Below the pieces are notes generated by a model, which was not told the origin of the DNA, did no database searches, and worked only from the letters and a program-made list of their open reading frames with translations. Positions 710 through 63,471 of a DNA stretch of 64,000 nt are shown piece by piece. The DNA is from Amedibacillus dolichus DSM 3991. GTDB lineage: Bacteria > Bacillota_I > Bacilli_A > Erysipelotrichales > Erysipelotrichaceae. A program made the translations under genes and the position numbers. Numbering within the stretch: the stretch's first letter is position 1; each line of letters begins with the position of its first letter. Location of the stretch: assembly GCF_000154285.1 (NCBI RefSeq), contig NZ_DS483477.1, positions 186,001 to 250,000 on the forward strand, given 5' to 3'.

Positions 710-1681
710 TTAAGAGTTGTAATTTAATACGGCAGTTTTTAAAATATTAAGAATTTCGTTTTTGAGTTCAATTGGTGCCGTAATTTCACAGTATTGCAGG
801 TATTGTAAACAAAAATAAATGATACCTTGTCGAGAAGAAGTAATAATAGCAAGAAAATGATTTTGATCAAAGGGTTGTAAAGACATACCAGTACCAAAAC
901 GATCGATAATATCATCTAATATGCGATATTTACATTTTAAAATGATTCTTTCCTCTTTACCTCCATACATATAAAATTTAGATTTGGCATAATCATATGG
1001 ATCAAAGGAGTTTTGAAGAGGCTTTCTGACAGCATCTTCATCAATTGCTATATTTTGCATTTTATCAATGCGATAATGACTTAAATTATCATAGTTATCG
1101 TTTTTACAAATCAAATAATAGTTTTCATTTGCATAGACCATATAGTAAGGGTGTACGCGATATTTATGTTCTTTACGTTTAACCAATGCTTTGTTAATAT
1201 CGTATTTCATATAGTCAAATATGACAGGGTGATTATGCTGTATAGCCTCTGTTAATAATTCGATATTTAAGAAAAACTCTTTGTTTTGAGTTTTACGCAT
1301 ATTTCGCATATATACCGTTTTATTGAAATCTTTTTTCATATATTGGCTTTGCGTTGAAAAAAGCTTTTGTATCAAATCATTTGAAGCTTTTTCCGGTATG
1401 AAGTGCGAAGCGTAAATTGCATTGCATAATAAGTGAATTTCATAAGGCTCGAAAAGACGTTGGGCAATGAAATATCCATCTTTTGCAGAAGTAGCAAAAT
1501 GAATATCACAACCGCAATCATTTAATGTTTGAATATGATCGTGCAGTGTTTTTCGATTTAGCTCACAATCATATTCTAATAATAAATATTGTTCGATTTG
1601 TTTGCGAGTAAGGCGATGCGTTTCATCGGAATATTTATTAAGTATATTATATACATGAATCAAGGAAGCTTTTTTGCTCAT
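710..1681 (-). CDS. WYL-domain transcriptional regulator
   Basis: A 323-residue DNA-binding protein. Residues 1-75 form a winged-helix-type N-terminus (RKTLHDHIQTLNDCG resembles a recognition helix and wing). The middle and C-terminus match a WYL domain, including HPYYMVYANENYYLIC and HYRIDKM, where WYL proteins bind a ligand or nucleic acid. The start at 1681 is chosen because a GGAGGT lies 6 bases upstream; an ATG at 1687 abuts that site directly. It is divergent from the HIRAN gene, and the region between them has a palindrome and a direct repeat. WYL regulators often sit in or near defence islands (known for the family). Control of the neighbouring CRISPR genes is possible but not shown. 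Confidence 0.85.
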   Translation of the reverse strand: MSKKASLIHVYNILNKYSDETHRLTRKQIEQYLLLEYDCELNRKTLHDHIQTLNDCGCDIHFATSAKDGYFIAQRLFEPYEIHLLCNAIYASHFIPEKASNDLIQKLFSTQSQYMKKDFNKTVYMRNMRKTQNKEFFLNIELLTEAIQHNHPVIFDYMKYDINKALVKRKEHKYRVHPYYMVYANENYYLICKNDNYDNLSHYRIDKMQNIAIDEDAVRKPLQNSFDPYDYAKSKFYMYGGKEERIILKCKYRILDDIIDRFGTGMSLQPFDQNHFLAIITSSRQGIIYFCLQYLQYCEITAPIELKNEILNILKTAVLNYNS

Positions 1682-1714
1682 ATTCATACCTCCGAATTTA
1701 TTTATCAATTATAT

Positions 1715-1800: not shown

Positions 1801-1816
1801 AAGAGAGGTTTTGTAT

Positions 1817-2116
1817 ATGTATATAACGATTTCAGGAATGGGACACTATTTAGGAATGGACGTTTTTCGATTAGGACAAATATTATTTTTAGAGAAGGAA
1901 GAAAGCAATCAACATGACATGGAAGCAATTAAAGTGTGTATGGAGGGTGGAGCACAGATCGGTTATGTTGCGAATAGCACCTATACAAGAGCTATTGGAA
2001 CATATTCAGCAGGATATATTTACAGAGATTTTGAGAGGACAGCAAAAGCTAAAGTAGCCTTTATTACACATGATATGGTCATTGCGGAATTATTGGTTGA
2101 AACTAAGGCACAGTGA
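1817..2116 (+). CDS. HIRAN-domain protein
   Basis: A 99-residue protein consisting almost entirely of one HIRAN domain. It shows the family pattern: an N-terminal beta strand with G-H-Y-L-G, then a leucine-rich segment, E-x-x-N-x-x-D-x-x-A-I-x-V (residues about 30-45) and G-Y-V (about 51-53). HIRAN domains bind DNA ends or stalled forks and are usually fused to helicases or nucleases; here the domain stands alone. ATG 1817 is preferred over the upstream TTG because an AGAGAGG site lies about 8 bases before it. It is divergent from the WYL regulator and 5' of a tiny hydrophobic peptide gene and cas9, so a defence-associated role is plausible but unproven. Confidence 0.8.
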   Translation: MYITISGMGHYLGMDVFRLGQILFLEKEESNQHDMEAIKVCMEGGAQIGYVANSTYTRAIGTYSAGYIYRDFERTAKAKVAFITHDMVIAELLVETKAQ

Positions 2117-2618: not shown

Positions 2619-2633
2619 ATGATGGAGGTTTTT

Positions 2634-5600
2634 ATGGGCAGATTAGTATTGGGATTAGATATTGGTATTACTTCGGTTGGATTTGGAATTATTGATTTAG
2701 ATGAAAGTGAAATTGTAGATTATGGTGTTCGTTTATTTAAAGAAGGGACAGCTGCTGAAAATGAAACAAGACGTACTAAGCGTGGCGGCAGAAGATTAAA
2801 ACGAAGAAGGGTTACTAGGCGAGAGGATATGTTGCATTTGTTGAAACAAGCTGGTATTATTTCAACTTCTTTTCACCCTTTAAATAATCCTTATGATGTA
2901 CGTGTCAAAGGACTGAATGAAAGGTTAAACGGAGAAGAATTAGCCACAGCTTTATTGCATCTTTGTAAACATAGAGGAAGTAGTGTTGAAACGATTGAAG
3001 ATGATGAAGCAAAAGCTAAGGAAGCAGGAGAAACGAAAAAAGTTTTGTCTATGAATGATCAACTTCTGAAATCCGGCAAGTATGTTTGCGAGATTCAAAA
3101 AGAGCGATTGCGTACAAATGGTCATATTAGAGGGCATGAAAACAACTTTAAGACAAGGGCGTATGTTGATGAAGCTTTTCAAATACTTAGTCATCAGGAT
3201 TTATCTAATGAACTGAAGTCAGCGATTATAACTATCATATCACGGAAAAGAATGTATTATGATGGGCCGGGAGGTCCACTATCTCCAACACCTTATGGAC
3301 GCTATACATATTTTGGACAAAAAGAACCGATTGATTTAATTGAAAAAATGCGTGGTAAATGTAGTTTATTTCCTAATGAGCCACGTGCACCTAAGCTTGC
3401 ATATAGTGCTGAGTTATTTAATTTGTTGAACGATTTAAATAATTTATCTATTGAGGGAGAAAAGCTAACATCAGAACAAAAAGCCATGATTTTGAAAATT
3501 GTTCATGAAAAAGGAAAAATTACTCCGAAACAATTGGCGAAAGAGGTTGGCGTATCGTTGGAGCAAATTCGTGGGTTTAGAATTGATACGAAGGGAAGTC
3601 CATTATTATCTGAATTGACCGGTTATAAAATGATACGTGAAGTCTTGGAAAAAAGTAATGATGAACATTTGGAGGATCATGTATTTTATGATGAGATTGC
3701 TGAGATTTTGACAAAGACGAAAGATATAGAAGGAAGAAAAAAGCAAATAAGCGAATTATCTTCTGATTTGAATGAAGAGAGTGTTCATCAACTAGCAGGC
3801 TTAACTAAATTTACTGCGTATCATTCACTATCTTTTAAAGCATTGCGATTGATTAATGAAGAAATGCTAAAAACAGAATTGAATCAAATGCAGAGCATCA
3901 CATTATTCGGTTTAAAACAAAATAATGAACTATCTGTAAAGGGAATGAAAAATATCCAAGCAGATGATACTGCTATTTTAAGTCCGGTTGCGAAACGGGC
4001 ACAACGTGAAACCTTTAAGGTAGTTAATCGCTTGCGTGAAATTTATGGTGAATTTGATAGTATCGTTGTAGAAATGGCACGTGAAAAAAACAGTGAAGAA
4101 CAAAGAAAAGCAATTCGTGAAAGACAAAAATTCTTTGAAATGCGTAACAAACAAGTAGCAGATATTATCGGAGATGATCGTAAGATCAATGCTAAACTTA
4201 GAGAAAAATTGGTTCTATATCAAGAACAAGATGGTAAAACAGCGTATTCGTTAGAGCCTATTGATTTAAAACTATTGATTGATGATCCAAATGCTTATGA
4301 AGTGGATCATATCATTCCGATTTCTATTTCTTTAGATGATTCTATAACAAATAAAGTTTTAGTTACACATCGTGAAAATCAAGAAAAGGGTAATTTGACA
4401 CCAATTTCAGCTTTCGTAAAGGGAAGATTCACAAAAGGATCCTTGGCGCAATACAAAGCATATTGTTTAAAGCTGAAAGAAAAGAATATAAAAACAAACA
4501 AGGGATATCGAAAGAAAGTTGAACAATACTTGTTGAATGAGAATGATATTTACAAGTATGATATTCAAAAAGAATTTATCAATCGTAATCTTGTAGATAC
4601 AAGTTATGCAAGCAGAGTGGTTTTGAATACATTGACTACTTACTTTAAACAAAATGAAATTCCTACTAAAGTATTTACAGTCAAAGGTTCTTTAACAAAT
4701 GCATTTAGACGAAAGATCAATTTGAAAAAGGATCGTGATGAGGATTACGGACATCATGCGATTGATGCATTGATTATTGCATCAATGCCAAAGATGCGCT
4801 TGTTAAGTACGATTTTCTCACGTTATAAAATTGAAGATATTTATGACGAAAGCACCGGAGAAGTATTTTCATCAGGTGATGACAGCATGTATTATGATGA
4901 TCGGTATTTTGCCTTTATCGCAAGCTTAAAAGCTATTAAAGTAAGGAAGTTCTCACATAAAATTGATACAAAACCTAATCGCAGCGTCGCAGATGAAACA
5001 ATTTACAGTACACGTGTGATAGATGGTAAAGAAAAAGTTGTGAAGAAATATAAAGATATCTATGATCCTAAATTCACAGCGTTAGCTGAGGATATTTTGA
5101 ATAATGCCTATCAAGAAAAGTATTTGATGGCGTTACACGATCCACAAACATTTGATCAAATCGTTAAAGTGGTCAATTATTATTTTGAAGAAATGTCAAA
5201 GTCAGAGAAATACTTTACTAAGGATAAAAAGGGGCGCATTAAAATTTCTGGAATGAATCCTTTGTCTTTGTATCGTGATGAGCATGGTATGCTGAAAAAG
5301 TATTCTAAGAAAGGAGATGGGCCTGCAATTACACAAATGAAATATTTTGATGGTGTATTAGGAAATCATATTGATATTTCGGCTCATTATCAAGTAAGAG
5401 ATAAAAAAGTTGTTTTGCAACAAATTTCCCCATATCGAACAGACTTTTATTATTCTAAGGAAAATGGATATAAATTTGTTACTATCCGTTATAAAGATGT
5501 AAGATGGAGCGAGAAAAAGAAAAAGTATGTTATTGACCAACAAGACTATGCGATGAAAAAAGCAGAGAAGAAAATTGATGATACATACGAATTCCAATTT

Positions 5601-5909
5601 TCCATGCATCGTGATGAACTTATCGGAATTACCAAAGCAGAAGGAGAAGCGCTTATTTATCCAGATGAAACTTGGCATAACTTTAACTTCTTTTTTCACG
5701 CTGGAGAGACTCCGGAAATTTTGAAGTTTACGGCAACGAATAATGATAAAAGTAATAAAATTGAAGTAAAACCGATACATTGTTATTGTAAAATGCGGTT
5801 AATGCCAACTATTAGTAAGAAGATTGTACGCATAGATAAATACGCTACTGATGTAGTAGGAAATTTATATAAAGTAAAGAAAAATACCTTGAAATTTGAA
5901 TTTGACTAG
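2634..5909 (+). CDS. cas9: CRISPR-associated endonuclease Cas9 (type II)
   Basis: RNA-guided double-strand DNA nuclease of 1091 residues, in the small size class. Domains in order: RuvC-I with LGLDIG (catalytic D9), arginine-rich bridge helix (about 45-68), recognition lobe (about 70-450), RuvC-II with VVEMAREKN (E480), HNH domain with YEVDHIIP (D558, H559), N573 and N582, RuvC-III with GHHAIDALIIA (H707, H708, D711), then a C-terminal WED/PAM-interacting region. All catalytic residues expected of an active Cas9 are present. ATG 2634 is chosen because GGAGG lies 5 bases upstream; a longer frame begins at 2619. It is first in a cas9-tracrRNA-cas1-cas2-csn2-array locus, and its 3' end contains the tracrRNA promoter -35 box. 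The PAM cannot be read from sequence. Confidence 0.98.
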   Translation: MGRLVLGLDIGITSVGFGIIDLDESEIVDYGVRLFKEGTAAENETRRTKRGGRRLKRRRVTRREDMLHLLKQAGIISTSFHPLNNPYDVRVKGLNERLNGEELATALLHLCKHRGSSVETIEDDEAKAKEAGETKKVLSMNDQLLKSGKYVCEIQKERLRTNGHIRGHENNFKTRAYVDEAFQILSHQDLSNELKSAIITIISRKRMYYDGPGGPLSPTPYGRYTYFGQKEPIDLIEKMRGKCSLFPNEPRAPKLAYSAELFNLLNDLNNLSIEGEKLTSEQKAMILKIVHEKGKITPKQLAKEVGVSLEQIRGFRIDTKGSPLLSELTGYKMIREVLEKSNDEHLEDHVFYDEIAEILTKTKDIEGRKKQISELSSDLNEESVHQLAGLTKFTAYHSLSFKALRLINEEMLKTELNQMQSITLFGLKQNNELSVKGMKNIQADDTAILSPVAKRAQRETFKVVNRLREIYGEFDSIVVEMAREKNSEEQRKAIRERQKFFEMRNKQVADIIGDDRKINAKLREKLVLYQEQDGKTAYSLEPIDLKLLIDDPNAYEVDHIIPISISLDDSITNKVLVTHRENQEKGNLTPISAFVKGRFTKGSLAQYKAYCLKLKEKNIKTNKGYRKKVEQYLLNENDIYKYDIQKEFINRNLVDTSYASRVVLNTLTTYFKQNEIPTKVFTVKGSLTNAFRRKINLKKDRDEDYGHHAIDALIIASMPKMRLLSTIFSRYKIEDIYDESTGEVFSSGDDSMYYDDRYFAFIASLKAIKVRKFSHKIDTKPNRSVADETIYSTRVIDGKEKVVKKYKDIYDPKFTALAEDILNNAYQEKYLMALHDPQTFDQIVKVVNYYFEEMSKSEKYFTKDKKGRIKISGMNPLSLYRDEHGMLKKYSKKGDGPAITQMKYFDGVLGNHIDISAHYQVRDKKVVLQQISPYRTDFYYSKENGYKFVTIRYKDVRWSEKKKKYVIDQQDYAMKKAEKKIDDTYEFQFSMHRDELIGITKAEGEALIYPDETWHNFNFFFHAGETPEILKFTATNNDKSNKIEVKPIHCYCKMRLMPTISKKIVRIDKYATDVVGNLYKVKKNTLKFEFD

Positions 5910-5917
5910 ATTATAAT
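5889..5917 (+). promoter_or_regulatory. tracrRNA promoter inside the cas9 3' end
   Basis: TTGAAA (5889-5894), 17 bases, then a perfect TATAAT (5912-5917). The -35 box lies within the last cas9 codons and the -10 box just after its stop. The predicted start near 5924 falls a few bases before the anti-repeat, as expected for a tracrRNA. Confidence 0.8.
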
Positions 5918-5923
5918 ATAGAT

Positions 5924-6014
5924 GATCATAATCTAGCAAAAGTTTATATGATCTAACAAAACAAGGGTTTATCCCGGAATCAAGTTCCAAGTATATGCTT
6001 GGAGCTTTTTCTTT
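5924..6014 (+). ncRNA. tracrRNA
   Basis: The 5' part (about 5924-5961) is complementary to nearly the whole CRISPR repeat. ATAATCTAGCAAAA and CTAACAAAAC match the reverse complement of the repeat ends, with mismatches and a bulge in the middle. It is followed by AAGGG-TTTAT-CCC (nexus-like stem 5965-5967/5973-5975), then a terminator: GTTCCAAG (5984-5991), loop TATATG, CTTGGAGC (5998-6005) and a T-rich run to 6014. Orientation is the same as the array, as needed for duplex formation with pre-crRNA. Predicted length is about 90 nt. The ends are inferred from promoter and terminator positions. Confidence 0.9.
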
Positions 6015-6025
6015 AAGAGGATAAT

Positions 6026-6928
6026 ATGGGATTTCGAGTATTATACATCGAGAATCAGTATCATCTCCAATTATATTTAGATAATTTAAAGGTGGAAACG
6101 TCTCAGGGAGATATACAGTTTCCGATTAGTGATATTCAAATTCTAGTAATTGATCATTATCGATCTACATTAACAGTTCCATTAGTAAACAAATTAACTG
6201 AAAATAATGTTTGTGTAATTATTTGTGGAATCGATCATTTACCAAAGAGCTATATATTACCCATGAATGGACATTTTGCACAAAGTGGAAATATTATGAA
6301 GCAAATCACTTGGTCTAATGAAATAAAACAAATATTACACCAACAAATTGTAAAAGCTAAGATTTTTAATCAAATTGAGATTCTGAAAACAAATCAATGT
6401 AAATATGAGGTAATAAAAAAACTGTATGAATTTTATGATACAGTAGATTTAGGCGATGCAACAAATCGAGAAGGATTAGCGGCGAAAATGTATTTTAGAG
6501 AAATGTTTGGCAATGATTTTATTCGATTCGAAGATGATGTGATCAATGCAGGACTGAATTATGGTTATAGTATTTTCCGTTCTTTGATTTCATCTATTAT
6601 TGTGGGAAAAGGTTATTTGCCTAATTTAGGAATTTTTCATAAAGGTAAGACAAACATGTTTAATCTAAGTGATGATATAATTGAGGTGTTTCGTCCGATT
6701 GTCGATAAATACGTGTATGATAATTTAAAAGAGGAATTATTATTTAAATCAAAACATCGCGAAGAATTGATACAGTTAACAGTTAAAAAAATAGAGATAG
6801 ATGGGAAACTACAAACAGTACCCAACGCAGTCAACGAATATGTTGAATCAATTTTAAAAGTGATTGAAACAGGTAAAATAACGGATTTTAAATTTCCATC
6901 TCCGCATGTTGTTGATTATGATTTATGA
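6026..6928 (+). CDS. cas1: CRISPR-associated integrase Cas1
   Basis: A 300-residue metal-dependent integrase that, with Cas2, inserts new spacers at the leader end of the array. The N-terminal beta domain is followed by a helical catalytic domain with TNREGLAAKMYF (E149), LGIFHKGKTN (H205) and SDDIIEVFRPIVD (E220), the usual acidic-His-acidic triad of Cas1. ATG 6026 follows AAGAGG directly after the tracrRNA terminator, so transcription must pass that terminator or start afresh. It overlaps cas2. The family assignment is unambiguous. Confidence 0.97.
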   Translation: MGFRVLYIENQYHLQLYLDNLKVETSQGDIQFPISDIQILVIDHYRSTLTVPLVNKLTENNVCVIICGIDHLPKSYILPMNGHFAQSGNIMKQITWSNEIKQILHQQIVKAKIFNQIEILKTNQCKYEVIKKLYEFYDTVDLGDATNREGLAAKMYFREMFGNDFIRFEDDVINAGLNYGYSIFRSLISSIIVGKGYLPNLGIFHKGKTNMFNLSDDIIEVFRPIVDKYVYDNLKEELLFKSKHREELIQLTVKKIEIDGKLQTVPNAVNEYVESILKVIETGKITDFKFPSPHVVDYDL

Positions 6929-7241
6929 ATTTATGAGACTCATTTTGTTTTTTGATTTACCAATGCATACAAAAAATGAAATCCGAATTTATAATAAGTT
7001 TCGCAAGTATTTAATACAAAATGGATATTTAATGATGCAGTTTTCTGTATATTGTAAGTTATTTCCGAATCGAGAAGCAGCGGTAAAGCATATTCAAATT
7101 CTTAAACGAAATATTCCAACGAGGGGTTTGGTTCATATCATGATGATAACTGAAAAGCAATATGAACGTATTGAAATTCTTGTTGGTAATCAATCAAGAC
7201 AGGAAAAATTAGCCGGAAGTAAGGCTTATGTAAAACTATGA
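6918..7241 (+). CDS. cas2: CRISPR-associated protein Cas2
   Basis: A 107-residue ferredoxin-fold protein that forms the central dimer of the Cas1-Cas2 adaptation complex. It starts with MIYEFMRLILFFDLP, the type II Cas2 pattern with the conserved aspartate at the end of strand 1, and has QFSVYCK and an ITEKQYERI segment. ATG 6918 is chosen by comparison with type II-A Cas2 N-termini; a longer frame starts at 6906 and a shorter one at 6933. It overlaps cas1 by 11 bases and csn2 by 4, so the genes are probably translationally coupled. Confidence 0.95.
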   Translation: MIYEFMRLILFFDLPMHTKNEIRIYNKFRKYLIQNGYLMMQFSVYCKLFPNREAAVKHIQILKRNIPTRGLVHIMMITEKQYERIEILVGNQSRQEKLAGSKAYVKL

Positions 7242-8101
7242 TTGGTATTCGTATAATTAAAGGCAGTAGTTTTTTCGAGTTTGGAATGAATCAATGCAAA
7301 TTGATTTTGGGGGATCACCTTGAAAAGCTATTTGCAATTCAGCAGTGCTTATATCAGTTTGCTTCTTCAAGTAGTATAACAGAATTTGAAACTGAAAATA
7401 ATATTAGCTTGTCTGTACAAATGAATGAAAGTGAAGTTAATAAAAAGAAAATGCAGATATTTAAAATAGGAGATTCATTTGAACTTCAAGACGAATTGAA
7501 AATGAATACTAAATCCTATCTTCAAGCTTATTGCGAAACCTTATTAAATGATGAAACCTATTATAATTCAATCAATACTATTTCTATTTTATTTCAAAGC
7601 CTCAGCCAAGAACTAAACCTTAATTCTGATCAATTTAGTATTGAATTTGCGGATATGAATGTTAAGCAACTTATCAAATTGATAAATGTGAAATTATTAC
7701 AAGATGATTTGTATAGTAGTGCTTATAATTTATCTTATGAAGATTATTATTTGTATCAATTAAATGTACTTTTAGCTATTGATGCTTCATTATATGAAAA
7801 TCAAGTGTTTTGCATTCTTAAATTACATACATTGACAGAAAAATTATATACTAAAATAAGAAAATTCAAGAATATTCGTTTTTTAATATTTTCTGTAAAA
7901 TGTATTTGTAAAATCAATATTGAGGATATTTATTATATTGGATTGAGAAATGTGGTTGATTTTGGCAATGAGGATCAAATATATGATTTGTTTTCAACAA
8001 AAAAGCAAACAATGGAGGAAATAAAAAATATGATAAAAGACTATTTTATAAAACTGAGTAATGGAACAAAAAATGATATTGTAGATTTGATAATGAAATA
8101 A
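7238..8101 (+). CDS. csn2: Csn2-like protein (type II-A, atypical length)
   Basis: A 287-residue protein starting within the cas2 stop (ATGA overlap). Fourth gene of a cas9-cas1-cas2 operon directly before the array, it occupies the csn2 position. Content fits the family: an N-terminal beta segment with FGMNQCKLILGDHLEK, a long acidic helical middle rich in Leu and Asn, and a C-terminal strand FLIFSVKCICKIN followed by D-I-Y-Y-I-G-L. Csn2 rings bind double-stranded DNA ends and assist spacer acquisition. The length lies between the usual short (about 220) and long (about 350) subfamilies. Sequence similarity is weak by eye, so identity rests mainly on context. Confidence 0.75.
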   Translation: MIGIRIIKGSSFFEFGMNQCKLILGDHLEKLFAIQQCLYQFASSSSITEFETENNISLSVQMNESEVNKKKMQIFKIGDSFELQDELKMNTKSYLQAYCETLLNDETYYNSINTISILFQSLSQELNLNSDQFSIEFADMNVKQLIKLINVKLLQDDLYSSAYNLSYEDYYLYQLNVLLAIDASLYENQVFCILKLHTLTEKLYTKIRKFKNIRFLIFSVKCICKINIEDIYYIGLRNVVDFGNEDQIYDLFSTKKQTMEEIKNMIKDYFIKLSNGTKNDIVDLIMK

Positions 8102-8142
8102 ATATACCCAAATTCAAATACATATGTTAAAATATGTTTGAG
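8102..8142 (+). promoter_or_regulatory. CRISPR leader with leader-anchoring motif
   Basis: Forty-one AT-rich bases separate csn2 from the first repeat. The last seven, GTTTGAG (8136-8142), differ by one base from ATTTGAG, a leader-end motif known from type II-A systems that guides Cas1-Cas2 integration. A possible -10 box TAAAAT lies at 8128-8133; no clear -35 box is seen. Confidence 0.65.
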
Positions 8143-9168
8143 GTTTTGTTACCATATGGATTTTTGCTAGATTAAGACAAGCTTGTAGATGTTCTACGAT
8201 TGGTTTTCGTTTTGTTACCATATGGATTTTTGCTAGATTAAGACAGCGGAGCGAAAACCTAAAGAAACCCAAGTGTTTTGTTACCATATGGATTTTTGCT
8301 AGATTAAGACAATGAATTGTTAATAGGTTCGTCGATGATAGTTTTGTTACCATATGGATTTTTGCTAGATTAAGACTTTTAGACATCGAAAACAAACGAT
8401 TGTATGTGTTTTGTTACCATATGGATTTTTGCTAGATTAAGACTGCTTGCCATCGAAAGCAGTGGGGGAGTATGTTTTGTTACCATATGGATTTTTGCTA
8501 GATTAAGACCTCATAATGTGTATGTCATTAATCCTATATGTTTTGTTACCATATGGATTTTTGCTAGATTAAGACAATCTTGTAATGGCTGGATTGTTAA
8601 TTTGCGTTTTGTTACCATATGGATTTTTGCTAGATTAAGACTCTGCTTTATTTTTGCGCTTACTCCATCTAGTTTTGTTACCATATGGATTTTTGCTAGA
8701 TTAAGACATGAAGATAAGAATGGTTTCTTATATGGGTGTTTTGTTACCATATGGATTTTTGCTAGATTAAGACAAATATTATAGCCAAAACCATCTGGCA
8801 TAAGTTTTGTTACCATATGGATTTTTGCTAGATTAAGACATACATTCCTTCATGGTGTTCGTCAACAAGGTTTTGTTACCATATGGATTTTTGCTAGATT
8901 AAGACTAATACTTTCAGAGCCTCTTTAGGTATTGAGTTTTGTTACCATATGGATTTTTGCTAGATTAAGACTTAATAAAGCATCAGCTCCCATAACACCG
9001 TGTTTTGTTACCATATGGATTTTTGCTAGATTAAGACAAAAGTTGGAAGGAAGAAATATGTTATCCTGTTTTGTTACCATATGGATTTTTGCTAGATTAA
9101 GACTGTATGGCTTGAGAGAAGCAAGTGATCGAAGTTTTGTTACTATATAGATTTTGCTAGATTAAAAA
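8143..9168 (+). CRISPR. CRISPR array, 16 repeats and 15 spacers
   Basis: The 36-base repeat begins GTTTTGTTACC and ends GCTAGATTAAGAC, with a palindromic CCATATGG near its middle. Repeats start at 8143, 8209, 8275, 8341, 8408, 8474, 8540, 8606, 8672, 8738, 8804, 8870, 8936, 9002, 9068 and 9134. The first 15 look identical; the last has several changes and a lost 3' end, typical of the leader-distal end. Spacers are 30 bases, except the fourth (8377-8407), which is 31. The repeat 5' GTTTTG, the leader motif, the degenerate end and the tracrRNA complementarity all indicate + strand transcription. Spacer targets cannot be identified here. Confidence 0.99.
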
Positions 9169-9171
9169 TGG

Positions 9172-34891: not shown

Positions 34892-34974
34892 GCGGGTGTG
34901 GCGAAATTGGCAGACGCACCAGACTTAGGATCTGGCGGGCAACCGTGGGGGTTCGAGTCCCTTCACCCGCACCA
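34892..34974 (+). tRNA. tRNA-Leu (UAG)
   Basis: Eighty-three bases with acceptor GCGGGTG/CACCCGC, anticodon loop CTTAGGA (anticodon TAG), a long variable arm (GGCGGGCAACCGTGGG region), T-loop GTTCGAGTC and an encoded CCA. Followed by a terminator. Confidence 0.97.
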
Positions 34975-62835: not shown

Positions 62836-62912
62836 GCGCCCATAGCTCAACTGGATAGAGCGTTTGACTACGGATCAAAAGGTTGCGGGTTCGATTCCTA
62901 CTGGGCGCGCCA
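62836..62912 (+). tRNA. tRNA-Arg (ACG)
   Basis: Acceptor GCGCCCA/TGGGCGC, anticodon loop CTACGGA, T-loop GTTCGATTC, encoded CCA. Confidence 0.97.
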
Positions 62913-62933
62913 TTCTTATTAAAAAATGAATAT

Positions 62934-63010
62934 CGGGATGTAGCACAGCTTGGTAGTGCACTTGATTTGGGATCAAGGGGTCGCAGGTTCGAATCCTGTC
63001 ATCCCGACCA
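62934..63010 (+). tRNA. tRNA-Pro (UGG)
   Basis: Acceptor CGGGATG/CATCCCG, anticodon loop TTTGGGA (anticodon TGG), T-loop GTTCGAATC, encoded CCA. Confidence 0.97.
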
Positions 63011-63022
63011 TTAAATTTAATT

Positions 63023-63099
63023 GGCTGGGTAGCTTAGTTGGCTAGAGCATCCGGTTCATACCCGGAAGGTCGCGAGTTCGAGTCTCGCCCCCGCCACCA
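63023..63099 (+). tRNA. tRNA-Met (CAU), elongator
   Basis: Anticodon loop TTCATAC within stem CCGG/CCGG, T-loop GTTCGAGTC, encoded CCA. The anticodon arm GGTTCATACCC resembles elongator tRNA-Met of Bacillus, unlike the tRNA-Ile2 type two genes on. The acceptor stem GGCTGGG/CCCCGCC has a T-C mismatch at position 4-69. Confidence 0.9.
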
Positions 63100-63113
63100 A
63101 TTTTGCTAAACTT

Positions 63114-63190
63114 GGACCCTTAGCTCAGTTGGTCAGAGCATCCGGCTCATAACCGGTGGGTCGTAGGTTCGAGTCCTACAGGGTCCACCA
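63114..63190 (+). tRNA. tRNA-Ile2 (CAU), probable
   Basis: Acceptor GGACCCT/AGGGTCC, anticodon loop CTCATAA, encoded CCA. The acceptor and D-arm (GGACC-TTAGCTCAGTTGGT) closely resemble Bacillus tRNA-Ile2, whose CAU is converted to lysidine-AU by TilS. Methionine identity is the alternative. Confidence 0.85.
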
Positions 63191-63202
63191 ATTCATACAG
63201 TT

Positions 63203-63293
63203 GGAGGAATACCCAAGTGGTTGAAGGGTCCGGTCTTGAAAACCGGTAGGTCGGGAAACTGGCGCCTGGGTTCGAATCCCAGTTCCTCCGCCA
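63203..63293 (+). tRNA. tRNA-Ser (UGA)
   Basis: A 91-base tRNA with acceptor GGAGGAA/TTCCTCC, anticodon loop CTTGAAA (TGA), long variable arm, T-loop GTTCGAATC, encoded CCA. Confidence 0.97.
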
Positions 63294-63315
63294 TTCAAAA
63301 TTAAATCTTATACAT

Positions 63316-63392
<77 letters not shown>

Positions 63393-63395
63393 AAT

Positions 63396-63471
63396 GGTTC
63401 CATAGCTCAGTTGGTAGAGCAAAGGACTGAAAATCCTTGTGTCCCTGGTTCAATTCCTGGTGGAACCACCA
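63396..63471 (+). tRNA. tRNA-Phe (GAA)
   Basis: Acceptor GGTTCCA/TGGAACC, anticodon loop CTGAAAA (GAA), T-loop GTTCAATTC, encoded CCA. Confidence 0.97.

What the first reader, a model, noticed from the sequence alone, without database searches (positions are those of the whole stretch)
5889..6014. tracrRNA gene between cas9 and cas1 with its promoter overlapping the cas9 end
TTGAAA-17-TATAAT, a long anti-repeat, a GGG-TTTAT-CCC nexus-like stem and a terminator hairpin sit in just 126 bases. The -35 box is inside cas9 coding sequence. After the nexus there is only one clear hairpin, which doubles as the terminator, so the predicted guide scaffold is short.
Basis: seen in the sequence. Interest (0 to 1): 0.8.

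Follow-up and report, generated by a model that had tools for sequence, protein, structure and literature searches.

The report
Ordinary tracrRNA gene behind cas9
This stretch holds the small helper RNA gene (tracrRNA) that a compact gut-bacterium Cas9 needs to use its guides; it is a normal member of a known kind, but its promoter is partly written inside the cas9 gene and its unpaired form is predicted to start with a hairpin seen in most related systems.

Summary
The finding is correct. Window 5889-6014 carries a complete tracrRNA gene of a type II-A CRISPR-Cas9 system in an Erysipelotrichaceae genome: TTGAAA-17-TATAAT, a predicted start at 5924, a 37-nt anti-repeat, a GGG-UUUAU-CCC nexus and one hairpin that is also the terminator. 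A covariance model built without the window finds it at 5924-6000 (E 4.9e-11). The genome has no other anti-repeat of this quality. Related loci share the layout, and their repeats, anti-repeats and nexus co-vary. The short scaffold and the cas9-tracrRNA-cas1 order are already described for SaCas9-like systems, so this is a new member of a known kind.

(1) The -35 box is two cas9 codons, Leu-Lys, TTG-AAA in 13 of 13 orthologues with an exact 17-nt spacer; all 14 other invariant Leu columns vary in codon. So the promoter constrains cas9. (2) The free tracrRNA is predicted to begin, at +1, with a hairpin. In this family the 5' end pairs with the anti-repeat's bulge segment, so it must open for crRNA pairing. 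The hairpin is a prediction from sequence, clearly non-random; its function is not shown.

The parts
2619..5909 (+). cas9, 1096-aa ORF (start at ATG 2634 behind GGAGG is likelier, 1091 aa)
   Evidence: TIGR01865 E 1e-189; SaCas9 best solved relative, E about 1e-175, over 9-1088
5889..5894 (+). -35 box TTGAAA, encodes Leu1091-Lys1092 of cas9
   Evidence: TTG and AAA codons and 17-nt spacer invariant in 13 of 13 orthologues
5912..5917 (+). -10 box TATAAT, just after the cas9 stop codon
5924..5953 (+). predicted 5'-terminal hairpin of the free tracrRNA: 5924-5930 (GATCATA) pairs with 5947-5953 (TATGATC)
   Evidence: predicted pair probability 0.86-1.0
5926..5962 (+). anti-repeat; upper stem about 5929-5950, bulge 5951-5953 (AUC), lower stem 5954-5962
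   Evidence: cofold with the repeat; genome search
5965..5975 (+). nexus stem-loop GGG-TTTAT-CCC
   Evidence: third pair is G-C in 12 and C-G in 3 of 15 sequences
5982..6014 (+). terminator hairpin (stem 5982-6007) with U-tract (6006-6014)
6016..6021 (+). probable Shine-Dalgarno AGAGGA of cas1
   Evidence: sequence; most relatives lack one here
6026..6928 (+). cas1 (type II)
   Evidence: TIGR03639 E 3.5e-87
6906..7241 (+). cas2 (ORF; true start probably a few codons downstream)
   Evidence: TIGR01573 E 2.1e-19
7238..8101 (+). csn2, 287 aa
   Evidence: PADLOC Csn2 E 5.2e-105; predicted fold matches Stu0660 of S. thermophilus, 3zth, E 2.8e-13
8143..9103 (+). CRISPR array, 15 identical 36-nt repeats, 30-32-nt spacers
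9136..9169 (+). degenerate terminal repeat
   Evidence: sequence

Best explanation
The interval is the tracrRNA gene of a type II-A CRISPR-Cas9 locus (cas9-tracrRNA-cas1-cas2-csn2-array) of the SaCas9/St1Cas9 kind. A housekeeping promoter whose -35 box is inside the last codons of cas9 starts a transcript of about 90 nt at about 5924. Its anti-repeat pairs with each repeat of the pre-crRNA (9-bp lower stem, 1x3-nt bulge, 22-bp upper stem); RNase III would cut the upper stem; Cas9 would bind the duplex, the nexus and the single 3' hairpin, which also ends transcription. Shown here: sequence, promoter match, complementarity, conservation, covariation. Inferred from known type II systems: transcription, RNase III processing, Cas9 binding. 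Also inferred: the free RNA first folds its 5' end onto the bulge segment, leaving the lower-stem segment (5954-5962) single-stranded as a landing site for the repeat.
For: Anti-repeat and chance tests. Leave-one-out model finds 5924-6000 at E 4.9e-11 and nothing comparable in the genome. Same anatomy in a dozen same-family loci and further named ones. Repeat and anti-repeat co-evolve: own repeat gives the strongest duplex for 8 of 11 tracrRNAs. Nexus compensatory change. -35 codons fixed: TTG in 12 of 12 at Leu1091 while the other 14 invariant Leu columns use 3-5 codons; in 10 distinct sequences only 17 of 215 invariant residues keep one codon. Full II-A gene set; intact array.
Against: No transcript data. 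No Rfam family matches. No protospacer found in the searches made, so activity and PAM are unknown.
Confidence: 0.96

Rival explanations
1. A tracrRNA relic in a dead locus: the sequence is there but the system no longer works.
For: One degenerate repeat at the array's far end (9136-9169); no protospacer matches in phage or viral collections.
Against: All four cas genes open, active-site columns kept in the alignment (D14, E485, H564, H713, D716 invariant), 15 identical repeats, anti-repeat matched to its own repeat, promoter at consensus. A degenerate last repeat is usual.
Confidence: 0.03
2. The region mainly makes a long-form tracrRNA that acts as a natural single guide and represses the cas promoter, as tracr-L of S. 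pyogenes does.
For: CTAGATTAT (5907-5915) upstream of the start mirrors ATAATCTAG of the anti-repeat and resembles the repeat's 3' end; tracr-L exists in other II-A systems (PMC11417352).
Against: That mimic is not conserved in relatives, does not cover the lower stem, no 10-nt or longer match exists between 5861-5924 and the region before cas9, and no second upstream promoter scores as well.
Confidence: 0.02
3. The 5'-terminal hairpin of the free RNA is a by-product of repeat complementarity, not a selected structure.
For: The hairpin's 3' arm is also anti-repeat; in L063 a perfect anti-repeat would fold nearly as well.
Against: Perfect anti-repeats fold at 0 to -4.1 kcal/mol in 10 of 11 lineages, real ones at -4.4 to -10.2; the paired first base sits exactly at predicted +1; covariation above shuffles and slid controls; outgroups reach the same feature with a separate hairpin.
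Confidence: 0.25

Closest known systems
SaCas9-like (clade V of the Cas9 ortholog catalogue, PMC7606464) tracrRNA scaffolds
   Same: Bulged repeat:anti-repeat duplex, nexus-like stem and one larger 3' fold; shortest scaffolds known; closest solved Cas9 is SaCas9.
   Different: Gene lies between cas9 and cas1; in staphylococcal relatives where an anti-repeat was found next to cas9 it lies upstream of cas9. Nexus is GGG-UUUAU-CCC.
tracrRNA of cas9-tracrRNA-cas1-cas2(-csn2) loci of mollicutes (PMC6882279) and of Listeria and Streptococcus loci fetched here
   Same: Same gene order, duplex with bulge, nexus, terminator.
   Different: Outgroups carry a separate 5' hairpin, often with a GACG loop, ahead of the anti-repeat; in the window's family the 5' end pairs with the anti-repeat instead.
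tracr-L / tracr-S of S. pyogenes
   Same: tracrRNA of a type II-A system with anti-repeat, nexus and terminator.
   Different: tracr-S has further 3' hairpins (own knowledge); no long natural-guide form is supported here.

Membership tests
tracrRNA of type II CRISPR-Cas | Anti-repeat complementary to the repeats of the same locus, outside the array | tested here: met
tracrRNA of type II CRISPR-Cas | Own promoter and terminator in the sense that yields the anti-repeat strand | tested here: met
   By sequence and conservation only:
tracrRNA of type II CRISPR-Cas | Nexus stem-loop 3' of the lower stem | tested here: met
   Compensatory change in 3 of 15 sequences
tracrRNA of type II CRISPR-Cas | Expressed, co-processed with pre-crRNA by RNase III, bound by Cas9 | not testable with these tools
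   No RNA data available
Type II-A CRISPR-Cas | cas9, cas1, cas2 and csn2 in one locus with an array | tested here: met
SaCas9-like clade with two-hairpin scaffold | Cas9 closest to SaCas9 and scaffold with only nexus plus one fold | tested here: met
   placement on the catalogue's own tree was not done
Rfam families | Match above gathering score | tested here: not met
   this tracrRNA type matches no Rfam family
tracr-L natural single guide | Upstream repeat mimic covering the lower stem, plus guide matching the cas promoter | tested here: not met

The most novel reading that the evidence does not exclude
Primary tracrRNAs of the SaCas9/St1Cas9-like clade begin at +1 with a conserved hairpin that protects the free RNA or gates its pairing with crRNA. 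In Erysipelotrichaceae the hairpin is built from the anti-repeat's own bulge segment and must be opened by the repeat, which would nucleate on the single-stranded lower-stem segment. In addition the cas9 C-terminal codons are held by the tracrRNA promoter.
Probability: 0.4. Interest if true: 0.5.

Novelty: new member of a known kind. Interest (0 to 1): 0.33.

Why it matters
It gives a complete, compact Cas9 system (Cas9 of 1091-1096 aa, scaffold of about 90 nt) with a clearly delimited tracrRNA, ready for sgRNA design. The codon-level evidence shows that the end of cas9 is under double constraint, so recoding or truncating cas9 there would also remove the tracrRNA promoter. The 5'-terminal hairpin, if real, is a part of tracrRNA that is normally left out of sgRNA designs and could set the stability and annealing speed of the natural RNA; it can be tested directly by probing and by 5'-end mutants.

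Tried and rejected
Natural single-guide (tracr-L) reading: a repeat-like stretch at 5907-5915 looked promising but is not conserved and no guide-like match to the cas9 promoter region exists. Second tracrRNA in the genome: the only other model hit off the array (contig C3, 27 bits, E 0.11) lacks a nexus and is chance. Rfam: no family. Spacer targets and PAM: the whole array against phages gave only E = 4 chance hits; four spacers' PAM-proximal 22 nt gave no viral contig. Single-sequence scan of genome contigs found nothing; the alignment scan found 80 loci. A consensus fold of the family alignment recovers only the nexus, because the terminator and 5' stems differ in register between lineages. 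Literature searches for a tracrRNA 5' hairpin or for a tracrRNA promoter inside cas9 gave nothing, but the library is open-access only and three key papers (Chylinski 2013, Chylinski 2014, Faure 2019) were not held, so novelty of these details is unproven.

Full report
What was checked. The sequence at 5889-6014 is as described. TTGAAA (5889-5894) and TATAAT (5912-5917) are 17 bases apart and form the best promoter match of the 7.3-kb region; weaker matches are no more frequent than chance. cas9 stops at 5909. The anti-repeat spans 5926-5962. Against the 36-nt repeat GTTTTGTTACCATATGGATTTTTGCTAGATTAAGAC it scores 45, while the best other place in the window scores 31 and 40 shuffled windows reach at most 34; the duplex is -37.1 kcal/mol against -14.1 +/- 2.8 for shuffled tracrRNA. 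The cofold has a 9-bp lower stem, an asymmetric bulge (one repeat base opposite AUC), a 22-bp upper stem, the 3-bp nexus and an 11-bp terminator stem.

Surroundings. The locus is cas9 (2619-5909), tracrRNA, cas1, cas2, csn2 and an array of 15 identical repeats plus one degenerate repeat. Pfam, NCBIfam and solved-structure sequences did not recognise the fourth protein, but PADLOC names it Csn2 (E 5.2e-105) and its predicted fold (pLDDT 84.6) matches Stu0660, the Csn2 relative of S. thermophilus, first in the PDB. The system is therefore type II-A. Cas9 is closest to SaCas9 and St1Cas9 among solved proteins. The genome has one Cas9, one array with this repeat and one anti-repeat outside it.

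Relatives. Sixteen of 273 same-family genomes, the window's own among them, hold this Cas9; the others are 49-57% identical. Wherever the junction is intact in the window's family, the tracrRNA lies between cas9 and cas1 with the same parts. A model built from 14 relatives without the window finds 5924-6000 with E 4.9e-11; the weaker hits on the minus strand of the array are expected, since an anti-repeat resembles the complement of the repeat. The third nexus pair changes from G-C to C-G in three sequences. The own repeat forms the strongest duplex for 8 of 11 tracrRNAs.

Promoter inside cas9. In 13 of 13 orthologues the -35 box is TTGAAA, in frame, encoding Leu-Lys near the C-terminus, exactly 17 bases before a -10 box, although TTG makes up only 5-42% of each gene's Leu codons. 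Among 12 aligned orthologues, the 14 other invariant Leu columns each use three to five codons; this one uses TTG in all 12. In 10 distinct sequences only 17 of 215 invariant degenerate residues keep one codon (1 of 15 Leu, 2 of 22 Lys), and here two neighbours do. The arrangement extends, with TTGAAA, TTGCAA, TTGACA or TTTACA, to several outgroups; in Streptococcus and some Listeria the promoter lies wholly behind cas9. This is strong evidence that the promoter is real, without RNA data.

5'-terminal hairpin (prediction). With the start set at 6 bases after the -10 box, the first base of the free RNA lies in a helix of at least 5 bp in 17 of 18 outgroup sequences and 6 of 9 distinct sequences of the window's group, against 11% and 7% in shuffles (p about 1e-15 and 1e-5, relatedness ignored). 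The signal peaks at the predicted start and falls off within two or three bases. Helix length alone, tested locus by locus, is weak evidence; combined it is significant. Outgroups have a separate hairpin, often with a GACG loop; in the window's group the 5' end (window GATCATA, others GGTTATA, AGGCTTTT, AGGTTTTAA, GTTCTAAT) pairs with the segment that forms the bulge (TATGATC, TATGACC, and so on). Covariation on the family alignment is 0.256 against 0.116 +/- 0.025 in shuffles and at most 0.111 when partners are slid (this count includes the nexus). Perfect anti-repeats would not fold this way (0 to -4.1 kcal/mol in 10 of 11 lineages) whereas the real ones do (-4.4 to -10.2). Acidaminococcaceae and Veillonella loci with the tracrRNA next to the array lack the hairpin. 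Proposed role, inferred: protection of the 5' end, or a gate that the repeat opens by starting on the single-stranded lower-stem segment.

What is known. sgRNAs of the SaCas9-like clade are reported as the shortest, with two hairpins after the duplex (PMC7606464), and the order cas9-tracrRNA-cas1-cas2 is reported in mollicutes (PMC6882279). The finding is thus a new member of a known kind. The coding -35 box and the +1 hairpin were not found in the papers that could be searched, which does not prove that they are new.

Noticed in passing
L068, L071, L080, L087, L092, L096, L112, L118, L122, L123, L128 (cas9-cas1 junctions): tracrRNAs of distant relatives start with a hairpin whose loop is GACG while the stems differ completely (e.g. 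GTCCTC-GACG-GAGGAC, GTAGTC-GACG-GACTAC).
   Followed up: partly
L086, L091, L103, L105, L113 upstream of cas9: In halophilic Bacillaceae the anti-repeat appears split: its outermost bases (GUCUCAU) and the rest are separated by a stem-loop, mostly with a GACG loop, inserted in the tracrRNA.
   Followed up: no
window 6006-6026 and cas1 starts in L049-L078: The tracrRNA terminator ends a few bases before the cas1 start codon; most relatives have no Shine-Dalgarno in between, so cas1 expression must come from read-through of this terminator. The window has AGAGGA.
   Followed up: partly
L047 / L063 (Floccifex porci): cas9 seems to carry a frameshift near residue 987 although tracrRNA, csn2 and arrays follow; assembly error not excluded.
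   Followed up: no
window 710-1708 (-) and 1811-2116 (+): A WYL-domain regulator and a small HIRAN-domain protein lie just upstream of cas9; a link with the CRISPR locus is untested.
   Followed up: no
window 8137-8143: TTTGAG directly before the first repeat resembles the leader-anchoring sequence of other II-A arrays (own knowledge).
   Followed up: no
window 62836-63468 and 34892-34971: Cluster of seven tRNA genes and one single tRNA gene.
   Followed up: no
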